In this document: piece after piece, positions 6,867 through 21,694 of the stretch | Layout: each line of letters opens with the position of its first letter | Position numbering within the stretch: the stretch's first letter is position 1 | Source of the DNA: Candidatus Gaiellasilicea maunaloa | GTDB taxonomy: Bacteria > Actinomycetota > Thermoleophilia > Gaiellales > Gaiellaceae | Direction: 5' to 3' | NCBI GenBank assembly: GCA_024330215.1 | Contig: JANDLU010000011.1 | Coordinates: forward strand, 1-61,463 | DNA length: 61,463 bases | Made by a program: the position numbers and the translations under genes | Notes under the pieces: generated by a model | The model's input: only the letters and a program-made list of their open reading frames with translations | Databases searched by the model: none | What the model was told of the DNA's origin: nothing

Positions 6867-7871
6867 GTGCACGCAGCTGAAGCGATCGCCCCACCGGTCA
6901 GCGTCGAGGCCGACCCGCGTGTCTCCGCGCCGACGATCGACGCGCGCAACGTGACGCGCAGCTTCGGCCCGCGCCGTGCCCTCGTCGATGTCTCCCTCGC
7001 GGTCGCGAGCGGCGAGATCCATGCGCTCCTCGGCCCGAACGGCGCCGGCAAGACGACGCTCCTGCGGGTTCTCGGCGGTCTGATGCAGCCGGACGGCGGC
7101 TCGGTGAGGATGCTCGGTGCCGACGCGACGCGGAGCACTCGGGCCCACCGGGCTCTCATCGGCCTCGTGCCGTCGGGAGATCGCAGCTTCTATCTACGGA
7201 TCTCGGGCTTCGAGAACCTCGTCTTCTTCGCGCGCCTCCACGGCCTTCGTCGCAGGGCGGCGAAGCAGCGGGCGACCGAGGTGCTCGAGGCCGTCGGCCT
7301 CGCAGAGGATGCGCGGCGCCCGGCCGGGGAGTACTCCCACGGGATGCAGAAACGGCTGTCGGTTGCCCGCGCGCTCCTCACGGAGCCTCGCGTGCTGCTC
7401 GTCGACGAGGCGACGCACGACCTCGATCCCCACGCCGCGCGCGTGGTCAGGGAGCTTGTCCAGCGGATCGCGGCCGACGGGGCCGCCGTCGTCTGGGCGA
7501 CCCAGCGCATCGACGAGATCCGGGGCCTGGCCCAGGACGTGACGCTCCTCCGGGCGGGGGAGGTCGTCTACACGGGAAGCGTCGTCAAGCTCGCCGCGCG
7601 CGTCCGGGTGACGCGACACGTGCTCCGCCTTCGCTCCCGCTCGACGCTCGCCGCGCCGTCACTCTTCCTGCTCCGACGGCTGCTCGCCCCGATCGCGACG
7701 GTCGTCCCGGCGACCGACGATCCGGAGCTCTTCGTCGTCACGTTGAACGACGACCGCATTCTCGGCGACGCACTTGCAACCCTGAGTGGGGCCGAGCTCG
7801 ACGTCCTGTCCTGCCGAGAGCTTCAGTCGGAGATCGAGGAGGCGTTCGTGCAGTTGACGGGCGCCGGTTGA
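6867..7871 (+). CDS. ABC transporter ATP-binding protein
   Basis: ATPase subunit of an ABC exporter. Walker A GPNGAGKT lies at residues 56-63, the signature is YSHGMQKRLS (about 157-165, a variant of LSGGQ) and Walker B is VLLVDEATHDLD with catalytic Glu181. A further 110 residues follow the ATPase core. The GTG at 6867 is preferred because GGAAGG lies 7 nt upstream; a TTG at 6807 would add 20 residues without a ribosome site. The permease gene follows 4 nt later. Position next to a nucleotidyltransferase and lasso genes makes it a candidate exporter (D function) for the lasso peptides, but multi-drug or glycan export is equally possible from sequence alone. Confidence 0.88.
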   Translation: MHAAEAIAPPVSVEADPRVSAPTIDARNVTRSFGPRRALVDVSLAVASGEIHALLGPNGAGKTTLLRVLGGLMQPDGGSVRMLGADATRSTRAHRALIGLVPSGDRSFYLRISGFENLVFFARLHGLRRRAAKQRATEVLEAVGLAEDARRPAGEYSHGMQKRLSVARALLTEPRVLLVDEATHDLDPHAARVVRELVQRIAADGAAVVWATQRIDEIRGLAQDVTLLRAGEVVYTGSVVKLAARVRVTRHVLRLRSRSTLAAPSLFLLRRLLAPIATVVPATDDPELFVVTLNDDRILGDALATLSGAELDVLSCRELQSEIEEAFVQLTGAG

Positions 7872-7875
7872 TCCG

Positions 7876-8733
7876 ATGAGCACCCTCCAGTACAGCGGCC
7901 CCGGCCGCCTCAGCCTGATCCGCCTCGAGCTCGGGAAGCTCTCGGCCTTCCTCCGCCGTGACCTGCTCATCGCCTGGAGCTACCGGCTCGCGTTCGTCTC
8001 CGAGTGGAGCGGGCTCGCGCTCCAGGCGGTCATGTTCTACTTCGTCGGCCGGCTCGTCGACCCGTCCGTGCTGCCAACGTACGGCGGCTCCGAGACGACG
8101 TACATGGAGTTCGCCGCCGTCGGGATCGCGATGACGGCTTTCGTGCAGCTCGCGCTTTCCCGCGTCGGGACGGGACTGCGCGCCGAGCAGGTGCAGGGGA
8201 CGCTCGAGTCGCTGCTGATGACGCCGACCTCGCCGAGCACGATCCAGATCGGAACCGTCTTCTACGACCTCCTCTACATCCCGCTCCGAACCGCGGTCTT
8301 CCTCGTGCTGACTGCCGTCGCGTTCGGTCTGCACTTCGATACCGACGGCTTCCTGCCGGCGCTCACGGTCCTGCTCGCCTTCATCCCGTTCGTCTGGGGT
8401 CTCGGCGTCGCCAACGCCGGGTTCATCCTCACGTTCCGGCGCGGCGGTGGCATCAGCGGCCTCGTGGTCACCGTGCTGACGCTCTTCTCCGGGGCGTTCT
8501 TCCCGCTCGAGCTCTTGCCCGAGTGGGGCCGGGACTCGGCGAGGCTGAATCCGATTGCGATTGCGATCGACGGGATGCGCCAGCCGCTCCTCGGCGGCAG
8601 CGGCTGGAGCGGTGTCGGCGGCGAGCTGCTCGTCCTGCTGCCGCTGTCGGCCCTGTCGCTCGCAGTCGGCCTGCTCGCCTTTCGAGCGGCACTCCGGCGG
8701 GAGAAGCGGCGTGGGTCGCTCGGCCTCTATTGA
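7876..8733 (+). CDS. ABC-2 type transporter permease
   Basis: Membrane subunit of 285 residues with about six hydrophobic segments (around residues 45-60, 75-95, 135-155, 160-185, 195-215, 255-275) and the C-terminal re-entry pattern SGAFFPLELLPEW that is typical of ABC-2 permeases of the drug, polysaccharide and bacteriocin export class. It belongs with the ATPase encoded 4 nt upstream and overlaps the start of the nucleotidyltransferase gene by 23 nt, so the three genes form one operon. This two-gene half-transporter design differs from the fused ATPase-permease usually named LasD/McjD, which leaves its role in lasso export unproved. Confidence 0.85.
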   Translation: MSTLQYSGPGRLSLIRLELGKLSAFLRRDLLIAWSYRLAFVSEWSGLALQAVMFYFVGRLVDPSVLPTYGGSETTYMEFAAVGIAMTAFVQLALSRVGTGLRAEQVQGTLESLLMTPTSPSTIQIGTVFYDLLYIPLRTAVFLVLTAVAFGLHFDTDGFLPALTVLLAFIPFVWGLGVANAGFILTFRRGGGISGLVVTVLTLFSGAFFPLELLPEWGRDSARLNPIAIAIDGMRQPLLGGSGWSGVGGELLVLLPLSALSLAVGLLAFRAALRREKRRGSLGLY

Positions 8734-9802
8734 GTCGTTGGGGGGAGTCGCTCACATCGCCGAGACCCAACCTCAGCCCGACCTCCAGCGCGATGCCGCT
8801 GAGATCTGGCGCGCCGTGGATCGGCTCGTCGACCGCGCGCCGAGCCTCGCCGACCTGCGCAGCCACAAGCTCGAGCTCTTTGCCGTGCGCCGCTGGCGGG
8901 CGCTCGGACGCTTCATCCCGGCGGAGATGCTCGATCGCGAGCGGCGCGCGGCTCTCGGTGCTCTTGCCGCACCCCGGTTGCTCGAGCGCGTGCGGACGGC
9001 GTACGGCGGCGAGATCATCCCGCTAAAGGGGCTGGAGGTCGCGGCGCGGTACCCCGACCCGGCCCTGCGCTCCTTCGGCGACCTCGACCTGCTCGCCGCG
9101 GACGCAGAGGCCGCGCAGGCCGCGTTGCTCGGCGCCGGATTCGTCGAGGTCGGCAACCCCGCGATCTATCTCGGCATCCACCACCTCCGCCCGCTCTGCT
9201 GGCCCGGCCTTCCGCTCGTCGTCGAGATCCATTCGCGACCGAAATGGCCTGGCGGGATCCAGCCGCCACCCTCGACACGCGAGCTCTTCGACGCAGCGGC
9301 CGGCGACCAGGTGAAGACCCTTCCGGCCGCCCAGCACGCGCTACTCCTGGCAGCCCACTCGTGGGCTCATGAGCCTCTGCGCCGGCTGCGGGACATGGTC
9401 GACGTCGCGGTCATGGCGGAGGCAGCCGGCCGCGCGGAGGTCGCCGCACTCGCCCGGGAGTGGCGCATCGAGCGGCTCTGGCGCTCGACGATCGACGCGG
9501 CCGACGCCGTTCTGCTCGGGAACGATCGGCCGTTGGCGCTGCGGCTCTGGGCGCAGAACCTCGAGAAGGCGCGGGAGCGAACCGTGCTCGAGAATCATCT
9601 TCAGCGCTGGGTCAGCGACTTCTGGATCATGCGGTTCGGCGCAGCCGCCGCCCGGGTGCCGACGACGATTGCCCGGGAGCTTCTTCCAAAGGAATCCGAG
9701 GGATGGGGCTCCAAGCTATCGCGCACGACTCGGGCCGTGCGGAATGCCTCTCGCCGGAGGTCTGAGCACAACAACGAGCTCGACCTCCGGCGGCGTCGCT
9801 AG
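8711..9802 (+). CDS. Nucleotidyltransferase family protein (lasso-cluster type)
   Basis: Protein of 363 residues in the NTP_transf_5-like nucleotidyltransferase family. The motif IIPLKGLEVAARYPDPALRSFGDLDLL (quoted blocks: KGLEVA, then RSFGDLDLL, residues 106-129) holds the Lys-Gly and the Asp124/Asp126 metal pair. This family recurs in lasso peptide clusters that also encode an HPr-kinase-like protein, such as the paeninodin type, where a tailoring or self-immunity role has been suggested. The start GTG 8711 has GGGAG 7 nt upstream and overlaps the permease; TTG 8738 is an alternative. The stop overlaps the convergent cyclase gene's stop within a shared CTAG. It probably modifies the peptide or a carrier; direct evidence is absent. 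Confidence 0.78.
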   Translation: MGRSASIESLGGVAHIAETQPQPDLQRDAAEIWRAVDRLVDRAPSLADLRSHKLELFAVRRWRALGRFIPAEMLDRERRAALGALAAPRLLERVRTAYGGEIIPLKGLEVAARYPDPALRSFGDLDLLAADAEAAQAALLGAGFVEVGNPAIYLGIHHLRPLCWPGLPLVVEIHSRPKWPGGIQPPPSTRELFDAAAGDQVKTLPAAQHALLLAAHSWAHEPLRRLRDMVDVAVMAEAAGRAEVAALAREWRIERLWRSTIDAADAVLLGNDRPLALRLWAQNLEKARERTVLENHLQRWVSDFWIMRFGAAAARVPTTIARELLPKESEGWGSKLSRTTRAVRNASRRRSEHNNELDLRRRR

Positions 9803-11589
9803 AGCGAACGGCTTGGTAGGAGCTCGAACACGGGCTCGGCGAGCTCCCAACGCTCGAGTACCTCGCGCGCGAACTCCGGCGCCGCCTGCATGCGCAACCA
9901 GCACTCTGCCACAGCAAGACGCCAGAGCAGCCAAGTCTCACGTCGGCCACGACGTGCAGGAGCGACGGCCCGAAGCCGATCGAAAAGATCGCTGCGGACG
10001 TAGCGGCGGATCTCCGCGCGGTCATCGAGCAATCGCCCGATTGCCGCGTCGTCCTCGACGTGGACGGCGTCGGCAAGCACGTCGTTGAAGAAGCTCTTCT
10101 CCGCGCGGAGCCGGATAGGGTCGGGAAGCAGACCCGTGAGAGCCTCCCGCAGGAGCGGACGGTCGTACTGGCGGTCGAAAGCGAGTTCCGGCGGCAGCGC
10201 CAGCACGGTCTCGACGAGGTCGACATCCTCGAGCAGCGGATGCGATCCGGCGAGCCCAGCGTCTGCGAAGGCGTGACGGAAGAAATCATGCGCGCCGGCG
10301 CGCTCGCGCCCGCGTGTGACGGCATCAGCCAGGTACGCCCACCAGCGAGGGCCCGCGGTCCCCTTCCATGCCCACGGCGAGCGGCCGCCCGCGTGCAGCT
10401 CTGCCGCCTCGTCAGTGAGCCAGCGTGGGGCATATCGCTCAGGCCGCCGCCTGCGCCGCAGTTCGTGCAGCCAGGCCGGGATCGCTCCTTTCAGCGCCAC
10501 TTCTCGGAGGACATGACGGCGGGCAGCCGACTCCTCAGCGTCCTTCGGATCCAGGAGCAGGCGCAGCAGCCGACGGGTCTCGACGAGCCGTCCGCCGCGC
10601 AGGCGGTCGGCGGCGAGGTACGGCGAGAGACCGAAGAGCTCGTCTCCGCCCTGCCCGTCCAGCATCGTCGCCATGCCCTCGCGGCTCGCGAGCCGGAGCA
10701 GGGGCTCGTGGAAGAACAGGTTCGGCGACGCGGGCGGTAGCTTCCAGGAGTCGAGATAGCGAAAGCTGGCCGCGAGGCTCCCGCCGCGCCGAAAGGAGAC
10801 GCCACCGATCGCGAGGCCGAGGACGCGTGCTCGCTCGGCCACCAGCGCGCTCTCGTCGGTGGCAGGATGCGCCGGGAAGACGGCCGAATAGGCGACGAGA
10901 CTCGCGCCGGCGGAGAGGGCAACGGCTGCGACAGCGCTGGAGTCGAGACCGCCGCTGAGCAGGATCCCGCTCGGGCCGCCCCGGGCGCAGCCGCGCTCGG
11001 TCGCCTGCGTCAGGCCTGCGCGCAACTCCATTGTCGCGTCTGCCCTCTTGCTCGCGCGCGACCGGCCGTAGCGGGGAGCCCAGTACGGCATCGGCTCGTG
11101 CGCAGCGGACCCGAGGCCGAGAACGTGTCCCCCGGCAAGCCGCTCGACGCCCGCGAGCAGCGTCTCGCCGGGCTCGCGGTTTCCGTCGACGAGCCAGCGC
11201 ACCAGCACGCGCTCGTCCGGACTCGGGGCTGTGTCGAGAAGCGGCAGCAGGTCACGAACCTCGGGGGCGAAGGCGAGACCCTTCGACGATTGCCTGTAGA
11301 CGACGCTGCCGGCGCCGAGCTGATCGACGGCGATCAGCCCCTCGCGGCCCCCGCTATCCCAGACGAGGAGCGCGAAGGCACCGCGTAGCCGCGAGAGCAT
11401 CGCTCGTCCCCAGCGTCGGTGTGCGGCGGCGACGAGCGCGTGGGGCGCCGTCGACCGAGGAACGTCGAGTGCGTCTGCGAGCTGAAACCGGTTGTCCAGC
11501 GATCCGGCGAGAACGGCGAGGGCGCCGTCGTAGACACCGCCGTCGCGCGTGTCGTAGCTAACTCTCAGGGATGCATCGCGAAACGACAT
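9799..11589 (-). CDS. Lasso peptide cyclase (asparagine synthetase-like C protein)
   Basis: Predicted lasso cyclase: an ATP-dependent macrolactam synthetase that adenylates the Asp9 side chain of the core peptide and joins it to Gly1. The 596-residue product has an N-terminal glutaminase-like domain without the catalytic Cys (it starts MSFRDASLRV) and a C-terminal synthetase domain with PP-loop SGGLDSS (residues 212-218), DGQGGDELFG and a conserved Arg-Glu-Lys region near RAEKSFFNDV. Loss of the N-terminal Cys and location beside precursor, B1 and B2 genes separate it from true asparagine synthetase. ATG 11589 has no clear ribosome site and follows a hairpin (11591-11621), so its expression may be lower than that of the precursors. 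Confidence 0.88.
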   Translation of the reverse strand: MSFRDASLRVSYDTRDGGVYDGALAVLAGSLDNRFQLADALDVPRSTAPHALVAAAHRRWGRAMLSRLRGAFALLVWDSGGREGLIAVDQLGAGSVVYRQSSKGLAFAPEVRDLLPLLDTAPSPDERVLVRWLVDGNREPGETLLAGVERLAGGHVLGLGSAAHEPMPYWAPRYGRSRASKRADATMELRAGLTQATERGCARGGPSGILLSGGLDSSAVAAVALSAGASLVAYSAVFPAHPATDESALVAERARVLGLAIGGVSFRRGGSLAASFRYLDSWKLPPASPNLFFHEPLLRLASREGMATMLDGQGGDELFGLSPYLAADRLRGGRLVETRRLLRLLLDPKDAEESAARRHVLREVALKGAIPAWLHELRRRRRPERYAPRWLTDEAAELHAGGRSPWAWKGTAGPRWWAYLADAVTRGRERAGAHDFFRHAFADAGLAGSHPLLEDVDLVETVLALPPELAFDRQYDRPLLREALTGLLPDPIRLRAEKSFFNDVLADAVHVEDDAAIGRLLDDRAEIRRYVRSDLFDRLRAVAPARRGRRETWLLWRLAVAECWLRMQAAPEFAREVLERWELAEPVFELLPSRSL

Positions 11590-11659: not shown

Positions 11660-11818
11660 CTACGGCGTGCTCGAGAACGTCAGGTCACTCTTCGGGGTTC
11701 CCGCCGGGAACGCCGCGTCCAGGAAGTCACCGTTCTGCGTCCCGGCGGTCAACTCGACGAGATCGCCATAGTCGACGACGTCAGGCGTCTCGTACTCGAC
11801 TGTCTGTTCGTGCTCCAT
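11660..11818 (-). CDS. Lasso peptide precursor 2
   Basis: A 52-residue precursor, too short for many gene finders. The leader (residues 1-25) has the YxxP element (Y9-E-T-P12) recognised by B1 proteins and ends VELTA, with Thr24 at position -2 of the cleavage site. The core is 27 residues: Gly1, Asp9 in GTQNGDFLD would close a nine-residue macrolactam, and the tail carries AFPAGTP and LTFSS, ending in Thr-Pro. This matches leader rules of actinobacterial lasso precursors. GTAGGAG lies 9 nt before the ATG. A promoter of its own is seen at 11852-11880. Followed by the cyclase gene 70 nt downstream. Core length is slightly longer than most lasso peptides, so C-terminal trimming is possible. Confidence 0.88.
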   Translation of the reverse strand: MEHEQTVEYETPDVVDYGDLVELTAGTQNGDFLDAAFPAGTPKSDLTFSSTP

Positions 11819-11851
11819 CGCCAAATGCTCCTACTGGTGGGTGAAGCCTAG

Positions 11852-11880
11852 AGCTTAGGGGCCTCGCCGCCTATTGACAA
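11852..11880 (-). promoter_or_regulatory. Promoter of lasso precursor 2
   Basis: TTGTCA (11875-11880) and TAAGCT (11852-11857) are separated by exactly 17 nt on the minus strand, upstream of the precursor 2 ribosome site. A small dyad CCGCCT/AGGCGG overlaps the -35 box. Confidence 0.6.
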
Positions 11881-11937
11881 GGCGGAAAAAGGTCGGAGTG
11901 GCAGTCGTCGGGGTCCGTTCTGATCCGAGCTGTGACG

Positions 11938-12096
11938 TCAGTGGTTCGAGAAGGATGGGTGGTGGTCGACTGGCGTCCCTGTGTGGAACGCGGAATCGAG
12001 ACCGTGACCGTTCGCCTGGCCTGCGGTCAACTCGACGAGGTCGCCGTAGTCGACGATCTCCGGACTCTCGTACTCGACTGCCTGCTCGAGCTCCAT
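11938..12096 (-). CDS. Lasso peptide precursor 1, His-rich core
   Basis: A 52-residue precursor whose leader is nearly the same as that of precursor 2: YxxP as Y9-E-S-P12, then VDYGDLVELTA with Thr24 at -2. The 27-residue core begins GQANGHGLD, giving Gly1 and Asp9 for a nine-residue ring. The tail has AFHTGTP and PSFS and ends Asn-His. Five of 27 core residues are His (positions 6, 13, 20, 21, 27), which is unusual. An AGGGGG ribosome site lies 8 nt upstream of ATG. It has its own promoter at 12127-12154 and lies directly after the B2 gene. Leader conservation with core divergence is what a duplicated RiPP precursor shows. Confidence 0.88.
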   Translation of the reverse strand: MELEQAVEYESPEIVDYGDLVELTAGQANGHGLDSAFHTGTPVDHHPSFSNH

Positions 12097-12172: not shown

Positions 12173-12577
12173 TTACAGCTCGGCGAGCCGTCCGAACTCC
12201 CGACGGTGGGCCGGCAGCAGCGGGACGCCGTCGCGCTCGACCCAGGCATGCGCGCTGAAGCGACCGGCCGGGGAGACGCCGATCACAAGCGTTGATTCAC
12301 GGCCGCGGCGCGCGAGCAGGCGGGTCAGGACGAGCGATTGCATCAGGCAGCGGGAGTCGGCCGGCAACCGCCGGAGGGTGCGCCGGACCGCGCCGGCGAG
12401 GCGCTCGTCGGTCGGGCGAGGCGGCAGGAGTTCTGCCGGCGCAACCGCACGGATCAGCTCCAGCGTCCGCGGCAGGTCCAGGCGGCGGAGAATCCACCTG
12501 ACCCGTACGTACTCTGCGACGATCTCGCCGGCCAAAGCGACCTTGCGCGACAGCGGGAGCGGGCCGGAGTCGATCAC
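12173..12577 (-). CDS. Lasso peptide leader peptidase, B2 protein (transglutaminase-like)
   Basis: Cysteine protease of 134 residues that would cut the leader after the -1 residue of the precursor. The catalytic triad of the family is visible: Cys77 in ADSRCLMQS, His110 in FSAHAWVE and Asp116 in WVERDGV. Length and order match stand-alone B2 proteins of the transglutaminase-like type (Transglut_core3). The GTG start at 12577 overlaps the HPr-kinase-like stop (GTGA), so the true gene is far shorter than the open frame that continues upstream. It needs the separate B1 protein encoded two genes upstream for substrate recognition. Confidence 0.87.
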   Translation of the reverse strand: MIDSGPLPLSRKVALAGEIVAEYVRVRWILRRLDLPRTLELIRAVAPAELLPPRPTDERLAGAVRRTLRRLPADSRCLMQSLVLTRLLARRGRESTLVIGVSPAGRFSAHAWVERDGVPLLPAHRREFGRLAEL

Positions 12578-13569
12578 GCGCCGAGCACCTTCTTCGCGTG
12601 CTCGAGCACGAAGCTCGCAGCCTCGCGCGCCGAGACGGAGGCGGGGATCTCGAGGTCGTAGAGTCGAGCGGATCCGGTGACTCGCTCGCAGATCGCAAGC
12701 TGGTTCAGCAGGCGCTGCCTCGTGCGCAGGTACGTCAGGAAGCTGCTTCCGAGCACGGTCTTCGGCTCCGGTGGAAGCTGCTCGCGCAGGCTCAGCCGGG
12801 CGAAGCGCGAGCTCCGGCTGAGCCGGAAGAGGATCGCGAGCGGCAGCGCCGAGGAGGCCTGCGAGGGCTCGAAGTGGGGCTTGTCGGTCGAGCCGACTCG
12901 ACGCCCGAGACGATCCCGCCCGACCGCCGTCATCGACCGGAGCTCGTGTGCAGAGACGCCGGCCCGCGCTGGCCCCGGATGCGCGAGAGCTCCATCGGGA
13001 CCCGGCTCGAGCGCGAGCACGTCGTCGGTCAGGAAGGTGGCTCCGGCCGCGACCAGATGAGCCGCGAGCGACGATTTTCCCGTTCCGGATGCAGCGGTGA
13101 AGGCGACCGCACGCCCGCCGATTCCGACCGCGCTCGCATGCAGCACCTCGAGGCCCTGGAGCGCCGCCGCGAGCGGGAGGGTCTGCGCGAAGAACAGCCG
13201 CTGCCAGCCGAGCGCCGACCGCCGCGGCAGCGCCGATCGGATCTCCCGCCCGTCGGGCGACACGACATGGCGTCCATGTCGCGGAGCCCAGATGCGGTAC
13301 CCCCGTTCCGGATGACGGTCGATGCTCATGAACAGCCGGCCGTCCGGAAAGCGCAGATCGACGGGATGCTCGACGCCCGTCCTCGGCCAGTCGCGCTCGA
13401 GGTCGACGGCGTCCTGCTCGTGGCACACGGTCAGCCGCGCGGAGGAGCCGGCGCCGCCGCTCAGGGCCGGGATGTCGAACGTCGACCGCACGTCGAGCCC
13501 GAACGCCCGGCCACGGTGAGAAGCGGCCGCCGCCGTCAGACCGGCCGCAGCCTGCTCAGCGACTGCCAT
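12574..13569 (-). CDS. HPr kinase/phosphorylase-like lasso tailoring kinase
   Basis: 331-residue protein with a C-terminal HPrK-like fold: a His in LHASAVG (about residue 144), the P-loop AASGTGKSSL (159-168) and TDDVLAL (181-187). HPrK homologues in lasso clusters, such as PadeK of the paeninodin cluster, phosphorylate the peptide's C-terminal Ser. Here both cores have Ser near but not at the C-terminus (LTFSSTP, PSFSNH), so the phosphorylation site, if any, may differ. No PTS genes are nearby, which argues against a role in carbon catabolite control. The ATG lies within the B1 gene end (14-nt overlap) and its stop overlaps the B2 start, so B1, kinase and B2 are translated as a unit. Confidence 0.82.
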   Translation of the reverse strand: MAVAEQAAAGLTAAAASHRGRAFGLDVRSTFDIPALSGGAGSSARLTVCHEQDAVDLERDWPRTGVEHPVDLRFPDGRLFMSIDRHPERGYRIWAPRHGRHVVSPDGREIRSALPRRSALGWQRLFFAQTLPLAAALQGLEVLHASAVGIGGRAVAFTAASGTGKSSLAAHLVAAGATFLTDDVLALEPGPDGALAHPGPARAGVSAHELRSMTAVGRDRLGRRVGSTDKPHFEPSQASSALPLAILFRLSRSSRFARLSLREQLPPEPKTVLGSSFLTYLRTRQRLLNQLAICERVTGSARLYDLEIPASVSAREAASFVLEHAKKVLGA

Positions 13570-13870
13570 TGAGCGTGACGTCGATCAGGCCACGCTCGTG
13601 GAGCCGGGTGCAGAAGGCGCGGAGATCCTCCTCGACCTCGACCGGCTCCTTCCCGTATCGGCCCGCGAAGGCAGTGAGCGCCTCGGCCACGCTGTCGCAG
13701 CGGTCGAGGAGCTCCAGCATCCCGCCTCCCGTCGCGTTCAGGCCGTGGTAGCGCCCCGTCTCCAGGTTGAGGATCACGGTCTCGGCGGCGAACTCCCGGT
13801 ACACGACATGCGCAGGGATCGACACGTGTGCAGTCGGGATCGAGAAGTCTGCCGGGAGCTTGCGCGTCAT
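13556..13870 (-). CDS. PqqD-like leader-recognition protein (lasso B1)
   Basis: 104-residue protein of the PqqD/RiPP recognition element family. Strand-rich segments VVYREFAAETVILNLETGRYHGLNATGG (blocks ETVILNLETGRYHGLN, then MLELLDRCDSVAEAL) are followed by a winged-helix-like half with VEVEEDLRAFCTRLHERGLI. B1 proteins bind the YxxP leader motif and present the precursor to B2. The ATG at 13870 is used because it lies 7 nt after the LuxR stop; an upstream in-frame ATG at 13909 would overlap that gene. Absence of other pqq genes rules against a PQQ role. Confidence 0.84.
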   Translation of the reverse strand: MTRKLPADFSIPTAHVSIPAHVVYREFAAETVILNLETGRYHGLNATGGGMLELLDRCDSVAEALTAFAGRYGKEPVEVEEDLRAFCTRLHERGLIDVTLNGSR

Positions 13871-13877
13871 CTGAGCG

Positions 13878-14534
13878 TCACGAGTCGCCGAACACGTCGA
13901 GAGCGACATCGGGGTCGGCGATCGAGAGGATGCCGAGCCCGAGTCCGTCGTGGGGATCGAGGATACGCGCGGAGGCCTCGGCTCGGGATCGGACCCCGAG
14001 CTTGCGGAAGCTCGCGGTCAGATGGCTCTTGACCGTCGCCTCGGTGACGTGCAGCTTCGCCGCGACCTCCTGGTTGGAGAACCCGAGCACGACGAGCCCC
14101 AGTACCTGCTTCTCGCGGACGGACAGCGCCGGGGGTGCGAGGTGGGTGCGCCGCGTGCGCGGGAAGACGAGTTGATCCGACAGGACGGCCGCCAGCGCGG
14201 GCGCGAGCGCGATCTCGAGCGTGGACTCGAGCACGAGCCCGTCGGCGCCGGCGGCGAACGCCTCGCGCACATCCGCGGCGCTCGCCGCCGGAACGACCAG
14301 CACGGTTCGCAGGTCCTGCTGGGCGGAATCGCGGAGGCCCGCGAGGGCTGTCAGTCCGTCACGAACGTCGCGACCCGAGACGACCGCGACGTTGGCAGCG
14401 CCGGAGCTCGAGCCAAGTCCTCCGAGGGCGGCCAGGAGACGCCGTCTCTGGATCGCATCCTCGGCCATGACGAACGCCCGCGGCGCGGGGTCGAGAACCT
14501 CGACGATCGGTGCGCGCTGTGGGTTGCCCGACAA
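13878..14534 (-). CDS. LuxR-family response-regulator-like protein with degenerate receiver
   Basis: 218-residue regulator. The C-terminal half has a typical LuxR HTH: LSVREKQVLGLVVLGFSNQE and ATVKSHLTASFRKLG (about residues 137-180). The N-terminal part resembles a receiver but lacks its phosphorylation site: the VVSGRDVRDGL block has Ser53 where the acceptor Asp is expected, and the late Lys is replaced by Glu103 in LVLESTLE. So it is probably not controlled by a histidine kinase. The TTG at 14534, 8 nt after the previous stop and behind an AGGG, gives a full receiver-like fold; ATG 14468 would cut into it. Its position between EPS priming genes and lasso maturation genes makes it a candidate local regulator. 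Confidence 0.75.
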   Translation of the reverse strand: MSGNPQRAPIVEVLDPAPRAFVMAEDAIQRRRLLAALGGLGSSSGAANVAVVSGRDVRDGLTALAGLRDSAQQDLRTVLVVPAASAADVREAFAAGADGLVLESTLEIALAPALAAVLSDQLVFPRTRRTHLAPPALSVREKQVLGLVVLGFSNQEVAAKLHVTEATVKSHLTASFRKLGVRSRAEASARILDPHDGLGLGILSIADPDVALDVFGDS

Positions 14535-14542
14535 GGCAGGCC

Positions 14543-15583
14543 CTAGGCCGACCGGCTGCCGACGGGTGGAGCGGCGTCCGGGACGGTCACCCGCGCGCCT
14601 TCGGCGAGCGAGCGCTCCGCCGCCTCGACGATGCGCACGACCTCGACCCCGAGCGCCGGGGTCGAGCGCAACGGCGAGCCGGTGCGGATCGCGGTGCAGA
14701 AGTCCTCCAGCTCGAGCTCGAGCGGCTCGGCGACCGCGACCCGCGGCGAGACGATGTCGCCGGTGCGGTAGCTCAGGCGGTACTCGCCAAACGTGGCCGG
14801 GTCGGGCAGATTCACGCCCGAGTCGAACACGCGCACCGGCTCCACCGACGTGTCGTCGTAGACGACCATCTTGTGCGAGCCGACGACGGTCGTTCGGCGC
14901 AACTTGCTCGGCGCGAGCCACGCGAGCTCGACGTTCGCGATCACGCCGGAGGCGTACTCGAGCTGGATGAACGCCACATCCGGCGTTTCCGGCATCACGC
15001 AGCCGCGGCTGAGCGCGCTCACTCGCACGGGCGGCTCCTGGAGCCAGTAGGAGAGGATCGAGAAGTCGTGCGGGCCGAGATCCCAGATCACACTCGCGTC
15101 CGACTGATGGAGCCCCAGGTTGACGCGGCTCGTGGAGACAAAGTAGATCTCGCCCAGCTCGCCCGAGGCGATCAGGTTGCGGATCGCGTGGACCGGGGGG
15201 CTGTAGAGGAACGTGTGTCCGGGCATCAGGACGAGGTCGAGCTTCGTCGCGACGGCGACGAGCTCGCTCGCCTCTTCGAGCGAGCCGGCGAGCGGCTTCT
15301 CGACGAACGTGTGCTTGCCGCTCTCGAGGGCGGCCCGCGCGAGCGGATAGTGGGTGCTGATCGGGGTCGCGACGACGACGGCTTCGATCTCCGGGTCGGC
15401 GAGGATCTCGCCGAGGTCGGTCGCCTGCCGTACACCGGGGTACCGGCGGGCCAGCGGCGCCAGAGCCTCGGGCCGCGCGTCGCAGACCGCTGCCAGCTCG
15501 GCGTGGGGCGACTCGTAGAGATTGCGGACGAGCTGCGGCCCCCAATACCCGAGCCCGACGACGGCCACGCGAACGCGAGTCAT
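14543..15583 (-). CDS. Gfo/Idh/MocA family nucleotide-sugar oxidoreductase
   Basis: 346-residue NAD(P)-dependent oxidoreductase with Rossmann motif VVGLGYWGPQLVRNL, the VVVATPISTHYPLA block and the VEKPLAGS Lys motif. In EPS loci such enzymes oxidise or reduce nucleotide sugars, for example UDP-GlcNAc-3-dehydrogenase types (WlbA/WbpB). FVEKPL and DLGPHDFSIL fit that subgroup. ATG 15583 overlaps the priming-transferase stop by 4 nt (ATGA), and the LuxR gene follows 8 nt downstream. It probably supplies a modified sugar for the surface polysaccharide; the exact product is inference. Confidence 0.85.
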   Translation of the reverse strand: MTRVRVAVVGLGYWGPQLVRNLYESPHAELAAVCDARPEALAPLARRYPGVRQATDLGEILADPEIEAVVVATPISTHYPLARAALESGKHTFVEKPLAGSLEEASELVAVATKLDLVLMPGHTFLYSPPVHAIRNLIASGELGEIYFVSTSRVNLGLHQSDASVIWDLGPHDFSILSYWLQEPPVRVSALSRGCVMPETPDVAFIQLEYASGVIANVELAWLAPSKLRRTTVVGSHKMVVYDDTSVEPVRVFDSGVNLPDPATFGEYRLSYRTGDIVSPRVAVAEPLELELEDFCTAIRTGSPLRSTPALGVEVVRIVEAAERSLAEGARVTVPDAAPPVGSRSA

Positions 15584-17079
15584 CTGGTTCCCCCGCGGTC
15601 GCGGAAGAGCTGGAGCGGCGTCCGGGCGAGCAGACGCAGGTCGAGGCCGAGCGACCAGCCTCGTGCGTAGGCGACGTCGAGATCGAGCGCTTCGCCGAAG
15701 GTCGCCCGCGACCGTGCCGTCACCTGCCAGAGGCCGGTGAGGCCCGCGGGCACGAGGAAGCGCTCGAAGTGATGGGGCCCGAAGAGCTCGGTCTCGTACG
15801 GAATGCACGGCCGCGGCCCGACGAGGGACATGTCCCCGCGCAGTACGTTCACGAGCTGCGGAAGCTCGTCCAGCGACGTCTTGCGGAGCCAACGGCCGGT
15901 CTTCGTGACGGCGTCGGGCCGCTCGAGCTTGTAGAGCCCATTGTCGCCGACCGACGCGGACGAGCTCATGATCGACTGCACGTACTCGAGATGCTCGCCG
16001 TCGTGCCTGGCGTCGGTCATCGTGCGGAACTTGAGTGCAGTGAACTCCTTCATGTCCTGCCCCAGGCGCGTCTGCCGGAAGAACACCGGGCCCGGCGAGT
16101 CGCGCCTGATCCGCCACGCGAACAGCGCGAAGAGCGGAGCGGTGAGGAGCAGGAGCAGGCTCGCTCCCACGACGTCGAGCGAGCGCTTGACGAATCTCGA
16201 GGAGCGCGAGATCCGAAGCGGGCGCAGGCTGAGAAGCGCAAGCCCCTCGACCGAGTGCACGTCGACATTCGGCGGCAGCACCTCGTAGAGCCGGGGAACG
16301 AGGTCGATCTGCACGTTCAGCTCCCGCAGCCCTCGGATCAGCGAGAGCGTGTGCTCGTGCGGTGCCTGGGAGAAGGCGAAGACGACCCGATCGATCTGCC
16401 GCTCCTGCACGAGGTCGAGTAGCCGGTCGGTCGGCCAGATCTCGATTCCCTGCAGCTCGTCCCGTCGCTCGAGCGGATCGTCGTCGACGACGCCGAGCAG
16501 GCGGATCCCGTACTCGGGATGCAAGAGGTACTTTCGCGCCACGAGCTGGCCCACCTGGCCGCCGCCGACGACGACCGCGTTCTGCACGTACGAGGCGCTG
16601 CGCCGGACGAGACTCCGACCGAGCGCTCGGCCGACGGTGATGAAGAGGATCGCAAGCGCCCAGAAGAGCGCCGTCTTCTCCAGATTCGGCGTCGTGACCT
16701 CGGTGAGCCGCGCGCCGACGTAGAGGATCCATGCTCCGACCGTGACGAGATGGAAGACGCCAACGACGTCGTCGCTCGTCGAGTGATCGGTTCGCTCCTC
16801 GTCGCGGTCGTAGAGGCCGTAGAGCTTGGCGGCAACGGCCCAGGCCGGCAGGCTGATCAGGAAGAAGACGAAGAGCTCGGCGACGTCCGGGTTGACCCGG
16901 TCGAAAACATCTCCGAGGAAGAGCTGCGCCACCACGAAGGCGGCCACGAGCCCGATGAGGTCCGCAAGCAGGAGCACTCGCCGGACGAGCCACCCGCGAC
17001 TCCGCCGTCGGCGGGTCGGAACGAGCGTCTCCGCCTGGGCGGTCAGACGCGCGACCGTCGTCTGCTGGACTCGATCCAT
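15580..17079 (-). CDS. Polyprenyl-phosphate sugar-1-phosphate transferase (EPS priming enzyme)
   Basis: 499-residue membrane enzyme that starts EPS repeat-unit synthesis by transferring a sugar-1-phosphate to undecaprenyl phosphate on the inner membrane face. Several N-terminal transmembrane helices (about residues 30-165) lead to a CoA-binding-like Rossmann domain (NAVVVGGGQVGQLVARKY) and the C-terminal bacterial sugar transferase domain, with a membrane hairpin after FVKRSLDVVGASL, then RQTRLGQDMKEF, LRKTSLDELPQL and LVGPRP. Size and layout match the WbaP/CpsE/EpsL-type family. A TATCGT -10-like box is 6 nt before the ATG. It heads a run of six overlapping or near-overlapping minus-strand genes that continues into the lasso maturation genes. 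Confidence 0.9.
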   Translation of the reverse strand: MDRVQQTTVARLTAQAETLVPTRRRRSRGWLVRRVLLLADLIGLVAAFVVAQLFLGDVFDRVNPDVAELFVFFLISLPAWAVAAKLYGLYDRDEERTDHSTSDDVVGVFHLVTVGAWILYVGARLTEVTTPNLEKTALFWALAILFITVGRALGRSLVRRSASYVQNAVVVGGGQVGQLVARKYLLHPEYGIRLLGVVDDDPLERRDELQGIEIWPTDRLLDLVQERQIDRVVFAFSQAPHEHTLSLIRGLRELNVQIDLVPRLYEVLPPNVDVHSVEGLALLSLRPLRISRSSRFVKRSLDVVGASLLLLLTAPLFALFAWRIRRDSPGPVFFRQTRLGQDMKEFTALKFRTMTDARHDGEHLEYVQSIMSSSASVGDNGLYKLERPDAVTKTGRWLRKTSLDELPQLVNVLRGDMSLVGPRPCIPYETELFGPHHFERFLVPAGLTGLWQVTARSRATFGEALDLDVAYARGWSLGLDLRLLARTPLQLFRDRGGTR

Positions 17080-17085
17080 GGGCCC

Positions 17086-17091
17086 ACGATA
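17086..17091 (-). promoter_or_regulatory. -10-like box for the priming transferase operon
   Basis: TATCGT on the minus strand ends 6 nt before the ATG at 17079. No ribosome site lies between, so a leaderless or almost leaderless mRNA is likely. The -35 region (TGGCCA, 17 nt upstream) is weak. Confidence 0.45.
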
Positions 17092-17230
17092 GGCGCAGTG
17101 GCCGCCTGTGGCCAGGCCAGCTTCAAACTGGCGGCCTGCCGGTACCTAGCCGTTCGCATAGGCGCCGAAAACGACAAGACTCCCCGCTCGGGCCGTGGAC
17201 GCTCGGGCGGGGTCCGATGAGACTGCAGCC

Positions 17231-18745
17231 ATGACGCCGACGGGGGCATCGACGAGGAGAACGCCGGCCGCCAGAGTCGGTCAGCGGCCGCCCGCAGAAG
17301 GCCAGGAGTCGATCGGCTACGCCGTTCTCGGAGGAGGCCCGGCGGGCCTGACCGGAGCCTACGCCCTCGGTCTGCGCAACCATCGCGCGGTCGTCTTCGA
17401 GGCCGACGGCACCGTCGGCGGGATCGCCAAGACGGTCGAGTTCAACGGCTACCGCTTCGACCTCGGCGGTCATCGCTTCTTCACGAAGCTGAAACAGGTC
17501 GAGCGGATGTGGGAGCACCTGATGGGCGACGACTTCCTCACGCGGCCTCGCCTCTCGCGGATCTACTTCGCCGGGAAGTACTTCGCCTATCCGCTGACGG
17601 CGAAGGACGTCCTCGGCCGGCTCGGCCTCTTCGAGTCCGCCCGGTGCGCCTTCTCCTACCTGTGGGCGCAGCGCAAGCGCAATCAAGACCAAGACACCTT
17701 CGAGGAGTGGGTGACCGCGCGCTTCGGCCGGCGGCTCTACAACGCGTTCTTCCGCTCGTACACCGAGAAGCTGTGGGGCATCCCGGGGACGGAGATCCGT
17801 TCTCTGTGGGCTGCCCAACGGATCAAGAACTTCTCGCTCTGGAAGGCGGGGTTGACGATCTTGGGTCTCAAGCAAGGCGACGTCACAACGCTGATCGAGG
17901 AGTTCAAGTACCCGCGTCTCGGGCCGGGCCAGATGTGGGAGCGCCTGCAGGGGCGACTGGAGAAGGAGTTCGAGATTCCGGTGGAGCTCAAGCATCGGTG
18001 CACCCAGATCAAGCACGCGGACAACACGGTGACGAGCGTCGTCGTCCAGCGCAACGGCGACGTGATGGAGCATCCGGTCGACGGCGTGCTGTCCACGCTG
18101 CCGCTCAAGGATCTCGTGCACAGCCTCGACCCGGCGCCGCCGCAGGAGGTGCTCGATGCTGCCGACCGGCTCCGCTATCGCGACTTCTGCCTCGTCGCGC
18201 TGATGACGACGGAGGCCGAGCCATTCCCGGACAACTGGATCTACATCCACGATCCCGGCACGCGCGCGGGCCGGGTGCAGAACTTCGGCTCCTGGAGCGA
18301 GGAGATGGTCGTGCCCGGCACCACCTGTCTCGGGGTCGAGTACTTCTGCTTCGAGGGCGACGACATCTGGGAGATGTCGAGCGAGGACGCCGTCGAGATG
18401 GCCAAGAACGAGATGGCCAAGATCGGCCTGATCGATCCCGACCAGGTGATCGACGGCGTCAAGGTGCGCGTGCCGAAGGCCTACCCGACCTACGACCTCG
18501 AGTATGAGCCGGCGGTCGAGACGATCCGGGAGTACCTCTCCGCCTTCACGAATCTGCAGGCCTGCGGTCGCAACGGCCTCCATCGCTACAACAACCAGGA
18601 TCACTCCATGTGGACTGCGATCCTGGCCGCGTTCAACCTCGCAGAGGACATGTCCTACGACGTGTGGTCGGTGAACACGGAGGAGGTCTACCTCGAGGAA
18701 GGCGAGCTCGTGGACGCGCTGCTGGACATCGACCTCGTTCGCTAG
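17231..18745 (+). CDS. FAD-dependent oxidoreductase, UDP-galactopyranose-mutase-like
   Basis: 504-residue flavoprotein with the N-terminal FAD motif VLGGGPAGLTGAYALG, the GHRFFTK block and a C-terminal RYNNQDHSMWTA segment. Proteins of this type sit in polysaccharide loci and are related to protoporphyrinogen oxidase and UDP-galactopyranose mutase folds; they are thought to act on nucleotide sugars. It leads an eight-gene plus-strand operon of glycosyltransferases, which supports such a role. ATG 17231 is used; a GTG at 17195 would add 12 residues. Neither has a clear ribosome site. Confidence 0.8.
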   Translation: MTPTGASTRRTPAARVGQRPPAEGQESIGYAVLGGGPAGLTGAYALGLRNHRAVVFEADGTVGGIAKTVEFNGYRFDLGGHRFFTKLKQVERMWEHLMGDDFLTRPRLSRIYFAGKYFAYPLTAKDVLGRLGLFESARCAFSYLWAQRKRNQDQDTFEEWVTARFGRRLYNAFFRSYTEKLWGIPGTEIRSLWAAQRIKNFSLWKAGLTILGLKQGDVTTLIEEFKYPRLGPGQMWERLQGRLEKEFEIPVELKHRCTQIKHADNTVTSVVVQRNGDVMEHPVDGVLSTLPLKDLVHSLDPAPPQEVLDAADRLRYRDFCLVALMTTEAEPFPDNWIYIHDPGTRAGRVQNFGSWSEEMVVPGTTCLGVEYFCFEGDDIWEMSSEDAVEMAKNEMAKIGLIDPDQVIDGVKVRVPKAYPTYDLEYEPAVETIREYLSAFTNLQACGRNGLHRYNNQDHSMWTAILAAFNLAEDMSYDVWSVNTEEVYLEEGELVDALLDIDLVR

Positions 18746-18759
18746 AGCAAACTGCTGCC

Positions 18760-19629
18760 ATGAGTGCTGGGAGCCAGCCGACGGTCACCGTCGTGATCGG
18801 GTCGAACGCGCCCCCGGAGCGGCTGGCGGCGTGCCTCGAGGCGCTCGAGCCGCAGCGAGACGGCGTCCAGGTGCTCGTGCACGAGGGACAGGCGAGCCCG
18901 ACGGAGCTCCGGGAGCGGTTCCCGTGGGCGCAGTTCGACCTCGCCCCTGGCCGGCTCGTTCCCGAGCACTGGCGCGATGGGATCGACGTGGCGACCGGAG
19001 AGATCGTGGCGCTGACGATCGCGCAGATGATCCCGGCGCCGGACTGGATCGCGACGATCCGGAGGCTGCATGCGACCCACGACGTCGTCGGCGGCGCGAT
19101 CGAGCCCGGCCGCGGCCTGCGCCTCGTCGACTGGGGCGAATACTTCTGCCGGTATGCGCGGGACATGCCGCCGTTCGAGGCGAGCAGGAACGTCGACCTG
19201 GCAGGGGACAACGCCGCCTATAAGCGTGCGTTGCTGGAGGGCATTGCCGAGACCTACCGCGAGGGATTCTGGGAGCCTGTCTCGCACAGGCGGCTCGCCG
19301 CGGACGGGGTCGTCCTCTGGCACGACCCGTCGCTCGTCGTCCGGCAGGGTCGCTCCGCGGGTTTCGCGGCCTTCGCCCAGCAGCGGCTGGAGCACGGGCG
19401 TCTCTACGGACATCAGCGCGGCGTTCACTTCTCGAAGGCACGGAATCTCGTCGGGGTGGTTGCTGCTCCCGCGGTACCAGCGCTGATGACGGCTCGTGTG
19501 CTGCGTCAGGTCTTCGTCAAGGGGCGCTACCGCGTCCAGGCCCTGCTCGCGTTGCCCGTGATCGTGGTCTACAACACGGTTTGGGCCTATGCCGAGGCGC
19601 GTGGGCATCTGGACCTGCTGAGACGATGA
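18760..19629 (+). CDS. Glycosyltransferase family 2-like protein
   Basis: 289-residue protein with a GT-A-like N-terminus (VTVVIGSNAPPERLAACLEAL), a central block DWIATIRRLHATHDVVGGAIEP and DNAAYKRALLEG, which match acceptor-side motifs of family 2 enzymes. A hydrophobic C-terminal region (QALLALPVIVVYNTVWAYAE) suggests membrane association. A classical DxD is replaced by a less clear IAQMIPAPDW region, so activity is likely but not certain. It starts 14 nt after the flavoprotein stop and overlaps the next gene by 4 nt. The next gene encodes a paralogue, so the pair probably arose by duplication. Confidence 0.72.
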   Translation: MSAGSQPTVTVVIGSNAPPERLAACLEALEPQRDGVQVLVHEGQASPTELRERFPWAQFDLAPGRLVPEHWRDGIDVATGEIVALTIAQMIPAPDWIATIRRLHATHDVVGGAIEPGRGLRLVDWGEYFCRYARDMPPFEASRNVDLAGDNAAYKRALLEGIAETYREGFWEPVSHRRLAADGVVLWHDPSLVVRQGRSAGFAAFAQQRLEHGRLYGHQRGVHFSKARNLVGVVAAPAVPALMTARVLRQVFVKGRYRVQALLALPVIVVYNTVWAYAEARGHLDLLRR

Positions 19630-20513
19630 GCTCACCGAAGCTCGCAGTCGTGGTGGCCTCGGTCAACGGCCTCCCGTACCTCGCCGACTGCCTGGAGGCA
19701 CTGGAGGCGCGCGCGCCGGAGGCCGAGGTGGTGGTGGCCGACTGGACCGACGAGGCGACGCGGCAGCTCGTGCGCGAGCGGTTCCCGAAGGTGAAGCTCC
19801 TCTCCTTCGACGAGCCGATGGCCGTGCCGGAGCTGCGGGCGGCCGGCATCTTCGCCTCCGGAGCTCCGTACGTGGCCCTGATCGAGGACCATTGCAACGT
19901 GCGCGAAGGCTGGGCCGAGCGACTCGTCTCGGCGCACGAGGTCGGGCACTCGGTCGTCGGCGGCTCGATCCGGAACTCGCCCTACCTGCGGATTCGCGAC
20001 TGGGCGGCGTTCTTCTGCGAGTACAGCCGCTACATGGAGCCGGCACCGGCGGGCGAGGTCGACGACCTGCCGGGGATGAACGTCTCGTACGACCGCCGCG
20101 CGCTCGACGCGATCGACGATCTGCTGCACGAGGGCCGCTGGGAGTCGTGGCTGCACGGGCGCCTGCTCGAGCGCGGCTTCGTGCTCTGGTGCGAGCCCGC
20201 GGCCGTCCTCGACCACGCGAAGGACTTCGGCTTCGTCGAGTTCCTCTCGCAGCGCTACCACTACTCCCGCTCGTACGCGGGGATGCGGAACGCCGAGCTC
20301 GGCGGCAAGCGCCTGCTCTTCGCGCTCGGCTCGCCGCTGATCATGCCGCTCATGTACTGGCGGATCGCCCGGAACGTGCTCGCGCGTCGTCGCCACAGGC
20401 GGGAGCTGGCGCTCGCGACGCCGCTGATCCTGCTCTACATGGGAGTGTGGGCGGGCGGCGAGGCGATCGGATACACGCTCGGCGGCGGGCGCAGCCTGCT
20501 GCAGGTCCGGTGA
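19626..20513 (+). CDS. Glycosyltransferase family 2-like protein (paralogue of the upstream gene)
   Basis: 295-residue protein with the same plan as its upstream neighbour: LAVVVASVNGLPYLADCLEAL at the N-terminus, VALIEDHCNVREGWAERL in the position of the metal or substrate loop, VGGSIRNSPYLRIRDWAAFF, NVSYDRRALDAI and a hydrophobic C-terminal end. ATG 19626 overlaps the previous stop (ATGA). It would add one sugar of the EPS repeat unit at the membrane. The sugar and linkage cannot be predicted. Confidence 0.75.
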   Translation: MSSPKLAVVVASVNGLPYLADCLEALEARAPEAEVVVADWTDEATRQLVRERFPKVKLLSFDEPMAVPELRAAGIFASGAPYVALIEDHCNVREGWAERLVSAHEVGHSVVGGSIRNSPYLRIRDWAAFFCEYSRYMEPAPAGEVDDLPGMNVSYDRRALDAIDDLLHEGRWESWLHGRLLERGFVLWCEPAAVLDHAKDFGFVEFLSQRYHYSRSYAGMRNAELGGKRLLFALGSPLIMPLMYWRIARNVLARRRHRRELALATPLILLYMGVWAGGEAIGYTLGGGRSLLQVR

Positions 20514-20518
20514 CGACG

Positions 20519-21694
20519 ATGAGAGTGGGAGTGGACGCGACGAGCTGGGTGAACCGCCGCGGGTTCGGGCGCTTCGCCCGCAACGCCGTCGGGCGCCTCG
20601 TCGAGTCGGATCCGGCGACCGAGTACCTCTTCTACATCGACCGACAGAGCGCGGACGGCGCCGACCTGCCCCCGCACGCCGAGGAGCGGCGCGTCGAGCT
20701 CGGGGAGGCACCGTCGGAGGCCGCCGCGGCCGGCTCGAGCCGGAGCCTTCGCGACCTGCTCCGCCTGACGCGGGCCGTCCGGCGCGAACGCCTCGACGCC
20801 TTTCTCTTCCCGTCCGTCTACACCTACTTCCCCGTTCTCGGGACGCCCACGGTCGTCGGGCTGCACGACACGATCGTCGAGGAGCTTCCCGATCTGACCG
20901 TGCCCTCGCGGCGCGAGCGCGCGGCCGTGGGGCTCAAGCACCGGGTCGCGGTGCGGCGTGCGAGTCGGCTCTTCACCGTCTCGGAAGCCTCCCGGGCGGC
21001 GATCGTCGCGCATTTCGGAATCGCGCCCGAGCGGCTGCGGCTCGTGCCGGAGGCCCCGGATCCGGTGTTCACGCCGCGCGAGGGGGAGAGACTCGCGGCC
21101 GGGTTGGCCGAGGCCGGGCTCGAGCCGGACGAGGCGTTCTTCCTCTTCGCGGGCGGGATCAGCCCGCACAAGAACGTGGAGACGTTGATCGAGGCTTACG
21201 CGCTCTCGAGCCGGCGCCGCGGCGAAGGGATGCCGCTGCTCGTCCTCGCCGGCGACCTGGAGCGCGAGGCCTACCTCTCCTCGGCCGCCTCGGTGCGCGA
21301 GCGCATCGCTCGTCACGGCCTCGAGGAAGCGGTGCGGCTGCCGGGCTTCGTCTCGGACGAGGCGCTCGCCTGCCTCTACAGCGGGGCGACGGCCGTCGTC
21401 ATCCCCTCGCTCGCCGAGGGCTTCGGGCTGCCGGCGGTCGAGGCGGCTGCCTGCGGCACGCCCGTCGCGCTCAGCGACCTGCCACCGCATCGGGAGACGC
21501 TTGGAGACGCCGCTCTCTTCTTCCCCCCGACCGACGTCGAAGCGCTGGGCGCGATTCTCGACCGGCTGATCGACGACGAGGCGCTGCGGAGAGACGTCGG
21601 CAACCGTGCGCGCCGAGCCGTCTCCGGGCTCACCTGGGACGCCGCGGCGGCCGAGCTCGGCACGTTGATCCGCGAGGCGGCGCGACTACGATGA
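20519..21694 (+). CDS. Glycosyltransferase family 4 protein
   Basis: 391-residue GT-B enzyme. The N-terminal VGVDATSWVNRRGFGRFARN block is typical of GT4 enzymes that act early in actinobacterial EPS loci. The C-terminal nucleotide-sugar domain has FFLFAGGISPHKNVETLIEA and the E-x7-E motif in AEGFGLPAVEAAACG. ATG 20519 lies 6 nt after the previous stop; an upstream GTG at 20510 overlapping that stop would add three residues. The stop overlaps the next gene's ATG. Confidence 0.88.
   Translation: MRVGVDATSWVNRRGFGRFARNAVGRLVESDPATEYLFYIDRQSADGADLPPHAEERRVELGEAPSEAAAAGSSRSLRDLLRLTRAVRRERLDAFLFPSVYTYFPVLGTPTVVGLHDTIVEELPDLTVPSRRERAAVGLKHRVAVRRASRLFTVSEASRAAIVAHFGIAPERLRLVPEAPDPVFTPREGERLAAGLAEAGLEPDEAFFLFAGGISPHKNVETLIEAYALSSRRRGEGMPLLVLAGDLEREAYLSSAASVRERIARHGLEEAVRLPGFVSDEALACLYSGATAVVIPSLAEGFGLPAVEAAACGTPVALSDLPPHRETLGDAALFFPPTDVEALGAILDRLIDDEALRRDVGNRARRAVSGLTWDAAAAELGTLIREAARLR

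What the first reader, a model, noticed from the sequence alone, without database searches (positions are those of the whole stretch)
11660..12096. Two unreported-looking lasso peptide precursors in tandem
Two 52-codon genes encode leaders with YxxP and Thr at -2, and 27-residue cores with Gly1 and Asp9. They sit inside a locus with B1, B2 and C genes. Genes this short are often missed, and the core family (G-x3-G-x2-LD-x2-F-x2-GTP-x5-F-S) is not one of the characterised lasso peptides known to me. It is the best candidate for a new system in this window.
Basis: partly seen in the sequence, partly recalled or inferred. Interest (0 to 1): 0.88.

Follow-up and report, generated by a model that had tools for sequence, protein, structure and literature searches.

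The report
Lasso peptide cluster with two precursors
An actinobacterium carries a complete gene cluster that should make two knotted ('lasso') peptides, probably decorated with phosphate and perhaps sugar near their tail; the peptides look new, but the kind of system is well known and their core type recurs in other bacteria.

Summary
Two tandem 52-codon minus-strand genes (11660-11818, 11938-12096) encode lasso precursors with near-identical leaders (YxxP...VDYGDLVELTA, Thr at -2) and 27-residue cores with Gly1 and Asp9. Both pass the cut-off of NCBI's lasso-leader model, so annotation can see them. They sit in a complete cluster: B1, B2, C, an HPr-kinase-like kinase (K), a nucleotidyltransferase (N), an ABC exporter and a LuxR regulator. 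It is the genome's only lasso cluster; dN/dS between the two genes is about 0.2.

The core is not private. LDxxFPxGTPxxxLTFS-type cores occur in other families of the class, in a kinase-bearing Sulfitobacter cluster and in an orphan Nostoc plasmid gene. B1-B2-C-K, often with N, is the class's usual lasso cluster.

Two points are less ordinary. The precursors end in -SSTP and -SNH, although known lasso kinases modify a C-terminal Ser; in the class only 8 of 25 kinase-linked precursors end in Ser, yet 21 of 25 have Ser/Thr in the last three residues. These clusters also lie near glycan genes more often than control stretches (11/24 against 1/20).

Verdict: new member of a known kind, with a testable tailoring question.

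The parts
11660..11818 (-). lasso precursor A1 (52 aa); core GTQNGDFLDAAFPAGTPKSDLTFSSTP
   Evidence: NF033521 23.7 bits, cut-off 19; ORF and sequence; homologues
11938..12096 (-). lasso precursor A2 (52 aa); core GQANGHGLDSAFHTGTPVDHHPSFSNH
   Evidence: NF033521 25 bits, cut-off 19
9799..11589 (-). C: asparagine-synthase-type lasso cyclase (596 aa), no N-terminal Cys; LSGGLDSS and DGQGGDELF motifs present
   Evidence: PF00733 112.5 bits; NF033535 125 bits (below its cut-off of 525); sequence; PDB matches 7ylz and 1ct9
12173..12592 (-). B2: leader peptidase (transglutaminase-like), Cys...HAW...Asp triad present
   Evidence: NF033537 78.8 bits, cut-off 33; PF13471
12574..13569 (-). K: HPr-kinase-like lasso tailoring kinase; His (LHASAV), Lys (GTGKSS) and Asp-Asp (TDD) present
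   Evidence: TIGR04352 31.8 bits and PF07475 20.7 bits, both below cut-off; aligns weakly with the HPrK active-site region 1jb1, E 0.27; motif conserved in nearly all homologues
13556..13909 (-). B1: PqqD-like leader-binding protein (RRE)
   Evidence: PF05402 59.8 bits; best PDB match is lasso TbiB1 5v1u, E 6e-7
13878..14528 (-). LuxR/NarL-type regulator (GerE domain) adjoining B1
   Evidence: PF00196 58.7 bits; homologue next to several related clusters
8708..9802 (+). N: NTP_transf_5 nucleotidyltransferase, convergent with C; GDLDLL motif
   Evidence: PF14907 74.3 bits, cut-off 31.2; homologues in related clusters
7876..8733 (+). ABC-2 type exporter permease
   Evidence: PF01061 72.3 bits; homologues in related clusters
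6930..7871 (+). ABC exporter ATPase (DrrA-like)
   Evidence: TIGR01188 212.6 bits (below its cut-off) and PF00005 109.1 bits
11590..11622 (-). 13-pair GC-rich hairpin between A1 and C; possible attenuator giving more precursor than cyclase
   Evidence: consensus match and folding only

Best explanation
This is a complete lasso-peptide cluster of the split-B, kinase-bearing type. Shown: two precursor genes, B1, B2, C, K, N, an exporter and a regulator in one contiguous block, with the expected motifs intact. Inferred from the named families: B1 binds the YxxP leader and presents it to B2, which cuts after Ala25 (Thr at -2). C activates Asp9 and closes a nine-residue Gly1-Asp9 ring around the tail, giving two lasso peptides of 2723.27 and 2805.24 Da (monoisotopic, unmodified). 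K probably phosphorylates a hydroxyl residue near the C-terminus of the precursor, most likely the Ser of the conserved LTFS / SFS block or one beside it. N may add a sugar to that phosphate, as reported for pseudomycoidin. The ABC pair exports the product. The bioactivity is not predictable from sequence. The confidence given is for the lasso pathway; I put the phosphorylation step at about 0.6 and the sugar step at about 0.4.
For: Leader model above cut-off for both genes. B2, B1, C, K, N and exporter domains. B1 closest to a solved lasso leader-binding protein. B2 triad and cyclase motifs. Kinase His-Lys-Asp-Asp motif, named as essential in the review PMC9266682, present here. dN/dS about 0.2 between the pair. 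B1-B2-C-K, often with N, conserved around homologous precursors across the class. Ser/Thr in the last three core residues in 21 of 25 kinase-linked precursors against 13.8 expected, permutation p 0.002.
Against: No product has been seen. Cyclase and kinase score below the curated cut-offs of their named NCBI equivalogs, so their exact subfamily is not assigned. Neither precursor ends in Ser, whereas characterised lasso kinases act on a C-terminal Ser (PMC8498205, PMC9266682). That N transfers a sugar is by analogy with one studied cluster, and I did not compare N with PsmN directly. The 25 precursors are related to one another, so the permutation p is too small.
Confidence: 0.88

Rival explanations
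1. The precursors are lasso peptides but are never phosphorylated: K and N serve another substrate or are relics, which is why the C-terminal Ser was lost.
For: Neither core ends in Ser; 17 of 25 kinase-linked precursors in the class do not; characterised kinases are reported to be specific for a C-terminal Ser (PMC8498205).
Against: K keeps His, Lys, Asp, Asp and its reading frame overlaps those of B1 and B2 on either side. Hydroxyl residues near the C-terminus are enriched.
Confidence: 0.25
2. The short tails after the LTFS/SFS block (-STP, -NH) are trimmed by a carboxypeptidase, so that a C-terminal Ser is exposed and the known kinase rule holds.
For: Homologues with the same core end exactly at LTFS (L094, Nostoc) or one residue later (LTFSN, L096); tails of 0-3 residues vary while the Ser block stays.
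Against: No peptidase other than B2 was identified in the cluster; the studied kinases act on the precursor before maturation (PMC9266682).
Confidence: 0.15
3. The system is a different PqqD/transglutaminase/kinase peptide pathway (HprK-related 'A' system or SynChlorMet cassette), not a lasso pathway.
For: K and B1 give weak hits to TIGR04352, TIGR04353, TIGR04248 and TIGR04249.
Against: Those hits are all below cut-off, while the lasso B2 equivalog and the lasso leader model pass theirs; an asparagine-synthase cyclase is present and the precursors have Thr -2, Gly1 and Asp9.
Confidence: 0.04

Closest known systems
Paeninodin-type kinase-bearing lasso clusters (A, B1, B2, C, K, D)
   Same: Split B1/B2, asparagine-synthase cyclase, HPr-kinase-like tailoring enzyme with His-Lys-Asp-Asp motif, ABC exporter
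   Different: Described in Firmicutes and Proteobacteria, with precursors ending in Ser (PMC8498205, PMC9266682). Here an actinobacterium, two precursors ending in -STP and -NH, and a different core sequence
Pseudomycoidin cluster (K plus nucleotidyltransferase N; phosphoglycosylated lasso)
   Same: K and N both present next to the lasso genes
   Different: N here is convergent with C and follows the exporter genes; homology of this N to PsmN was not tested; the C-terminal residue is not Ser
Uncharacterised lasso precursors with LDxxFPxGTPxxxLTFS cores (L094, L096, L037 in the class; Sulfitobacter indolifex plasmid; Nostoc sp. UHCC 0302 plasmid)
   Same: Same core pattern: Gly5, Asp9, Phe12, Thr16-Pro17 and mostly a near-terminal LTFS-like block
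   Different: Those mostly end at or within one residue of the Ser/Thr; leaders differ outside the class; the Nostoc gene has no lasso genes nearby
NCBIfam NF033521 lasso_leader_L3
   Same: Both leaders pass its curated cut-off
   Different: The model covers only 20 leader positions, not the core

Membership tests
Lasso peptide biosynthetic cluster | Precursor with Thr at -2 and an acidic residue at core position 7-9 | tested here: met
   Thr -2, Gly1, Asp9 in both
Lasso peptide biosynthetic cluster | B2 leader peptidase with Cys-His-Asp | tested here: met
   NF033537 78.8 bits over 33; motif seen
Lasso peptide biosynthetic cluster | B1 / RRE leader-binding protein | tested here: met
   PF05402; TbiB1 5v1u E 6e-7
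Lasso peptide biosynthetic cluster | Asparagine-synthase-type macrolactam cyclase | tested here: met
   PF00733 112.5 bits; ATP-binding and DGQGGDE motifs. NF033535 cut-off not reached
Lasso peptide biosynthetic cluster | Threaded Gly1-Asp9 macrolactam product | not testable with these tools
   needs expression and mass spectrometry or NMR
Phosphorylated (paeninodin-type) lasso peptides | HPr-kinase-like K with His-Lys-Asp-Asp | tested here: met
   LHASAV...GTGKSS...TDD; motif from PMC9266682
Phosphorylated (paeninodin-type) lasso peptides | Precursor ends in Ser | tested here: not met
   A1 ends -SSTP, A2 ends -SFSNH; so not filed as paeninodin-type, only as probably working like it
Phosphoglycosylated (pseudomycoidin-type) lasso peptides | Nucleotidyltransferase gene N in the cluster | tested here: met
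   PF14907 74.3 bits over 31.2
Phosphoglycosylated (pseudomycoidin-type) lasso peptides | Sugar on the phosphate of the C-terminal Ser | not testable with these tools
   needs MS/MS
HprK-related kinase A system (TIGR04352/TIGR04353) | Scores above curated cut-offs | tested here: not met
   31.8 against 200 bits; 24.1 against 35 bits

The most novel reading that the evidence does not exclude
In this actinobacterial class the lasso kinase phosphorylates a Ser or Thr one to three residues before the C-terminus, not only the terminal one, and N joins a sugar to it, so that the lasso peptide is linked to, or made alongside, a cell-surface glycan assembled by the neighbouring polysaccharide genes.
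Probability: 0.12. Interest if true: 0.65.

Novelty: new member of a known kind. Interest (0 to 1): 0.32.

Why it matters
It extends kinase- and nucleotidyltransferase-bearing lasso clusters, described in the reviews for Firmicutes and Proteobacteria, to a whole class of little-cultured Actinomycetota where they look like the standard form. It also gives a direct test of whether the C-terminal-Ser rule for lasso kinases is general. The two exact products are probably undescribed, and no activity is known.

Tried and rejected
A second partial match to the precursor DNA in the same genome (contig 113) proved to be a chance 28-base match inside an rfbD-like reading frame. Searches for leaders and B2 elsewhere in the genome found no other lasso locus. 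A phylum-wide search with the precursor profile found little beyond the class; its sample left out known carriers, so it is no evidence of absence. Searching papers for the core motif gave nothing. The glycan-neighbour test used one query translated in a wrong frame (GT4a), which can only lower the counts. Structure prediction was not used: it would not settle threading or the kinase target.

Full report
Observation. Their products are 52 residues each and 60% identical, with leaders that differ at only a few positions and cores of 27 residues that start with Gly and carry Asp at position 9. Both pass the curated cut-off of NCBI's lasso-leader family NF033521, at 23.7 and 25 bits against 19. 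Over the 42 codons that align without gaps, dN is 0.19 and dS 0.90, as expected of translated paralogues; the counts are small. A simple precursor pattern alone would arise by chance about 0.7 times per window, so the family models and the context matter more than the motif.

Surroundings. Reading down the minus strand there are a LuxR-type regulator (14528-13878), B1 (13909-13556), an HPr-kinase-like kinase K (13569-12574), B2 (12592-12173), A2, A1 and C (11589-9799). On the plus strand, converging on C, lie an ABC ATPase (6930-7871), its permease (7876-8733) and a nucleotidyltransferase N (8708-9802). B1, K and B2 overlap one another, as do the permease and N. B1's best solved relative is TbiB1, a lasso leader-binding protein. 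B2 keeps its Cys, His and Asp. C has the ATP-binding and DGQGGDE motifs of asparagine synthases and no N-terminal Cys. K keeps the His, Lys, Asp, Asp that the review PMC9266682 names as essential in lasso kinases. A 13-pair hairpin lies between A1 and C and could favour precursor over cyclase; this is inference.

Distribution. The genome has no other lasso locus. In 399 genomes of the class, 48 have lasso B2, 33 have lasso-type leaders and 17 have a close relative of this K. I fetched 40 stretches around such hits. Almost all that have C and B2 also have B1 and an HPr-kinase-like gene, nearly always with the LHxSAV / GK[ST] / DD pattern where I checked it, and most have an N homologue. The layout of the window is therefore the ordinary one for the class. 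One of the class genomes (G169) shares its contig with record JAFAQQ010000056, an Actinomycetota MAG, and a related cluster lies in a Solirubrobacterales MAG. That the window's class is Thermoleophilia is my inference.

Core family. The same core pattern appears in L094 (GQSSGSRLDATFPNGTPIPNLTFS), L096 (LQKDGGALDAAFPPGTPKGDLTFSN) and, more loosely, L037 (GSATGNSTDKLFNPLTPRSQLTFT). Outside the phylum it appears on plasmids of Sulfitobacter indolifex and Nostoc sp. UHCC 0302. The Sulfitobacter cluster has B1, B2, C and a kinase, with sulfotransferase and polysaccharide genes around it. The Nostoc gene has no lasso gene within 7 kb and lies near what looks like a transposase. I found no paper describing these products in the open-access library; most subscription papers are not held.

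Mechanism. Leader binding, cleavage after Ala25, Gly1-Asp9 closure and export follow from the families present. For tailoring, the reviews PMC8498205 and PMC9266682 report that lasso kinases phosphorylate a C-terminal Ser, and that the nucleotidyltransferase of pseudomycoidin adds hexoses to the phosphate. Here neither precursor ends in Ser. Across 25 precursors of kinase-bearing clusters in the class, 8 end in Ser (2.7 expected when tail residues are shuffled) and 21 have Ser or Thr within the last three residues (13.8 expected, p 0.002). Relatedness inflates this, and some of the 25 precursor calls are less certain than A1 and A2. The likeliest reading is that the kinase accepts a hydroxyl residue close to, not only at, the C-terminus; trimming of the tail and loss of the modification remain open.

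Glycan genes nearby. The cluster lies beside sugar-phosphate transferase, glycosyltransferase and sugar-modifying genes. With those as queries, 11 of 24 lasso loci but 1 of 20 arbitrary stretches from class genomes have a homologue (Fisher p 0.003). This may reflect co-location in variable biosynthetic islands rather than a functional link.

Verdict. A real, complete lasso cluster and probably two undescribed peptides, but of a known kind. The open point is the kinase's target.

Noticed in passing
L024, L030, L031, L032, L034, L036 (about base 1500 in each locus): In family f9 of the class many small genes match the lasso leader model but end in a uniform ECxxWQCSVTVPPPP tail; one locus I read (L036) holds redox genes (multihaem cytochrome-like, molybdopterin oxidoreductase-like), and lasso B2 in these genomes is on other contigs. 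They look like a different peptide family with a lasso-like leader.
   Followed up: partly
window 14543-22971: A block of polysaccharide genes (Gfo/Idh oxidoreductase, sugar-phosphate transferase, mutase-like and glycosyltransferase genes) flanks the lasso cluster; such genes are enriched near lasso clusters of the class.
   Followed up: partly
L091, L093, L095, L098: Four lasso clusters carry two kinase homologues each; the second may act on another site or on the first phosphate.
   Followed up: no
L113:6980-7126: Orphan lasso-type precursor on a conjugative Nostoc plasmid, with a transposase-like reading frame nearby and no B or C gene within 7 kb.
   Followed up: no
L089, L091, L095, L100 and window A1: Many precursors of the class end in Pro (7 of 25 in kinase-bearing clusters), which is unexplained.
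   Followed up: no
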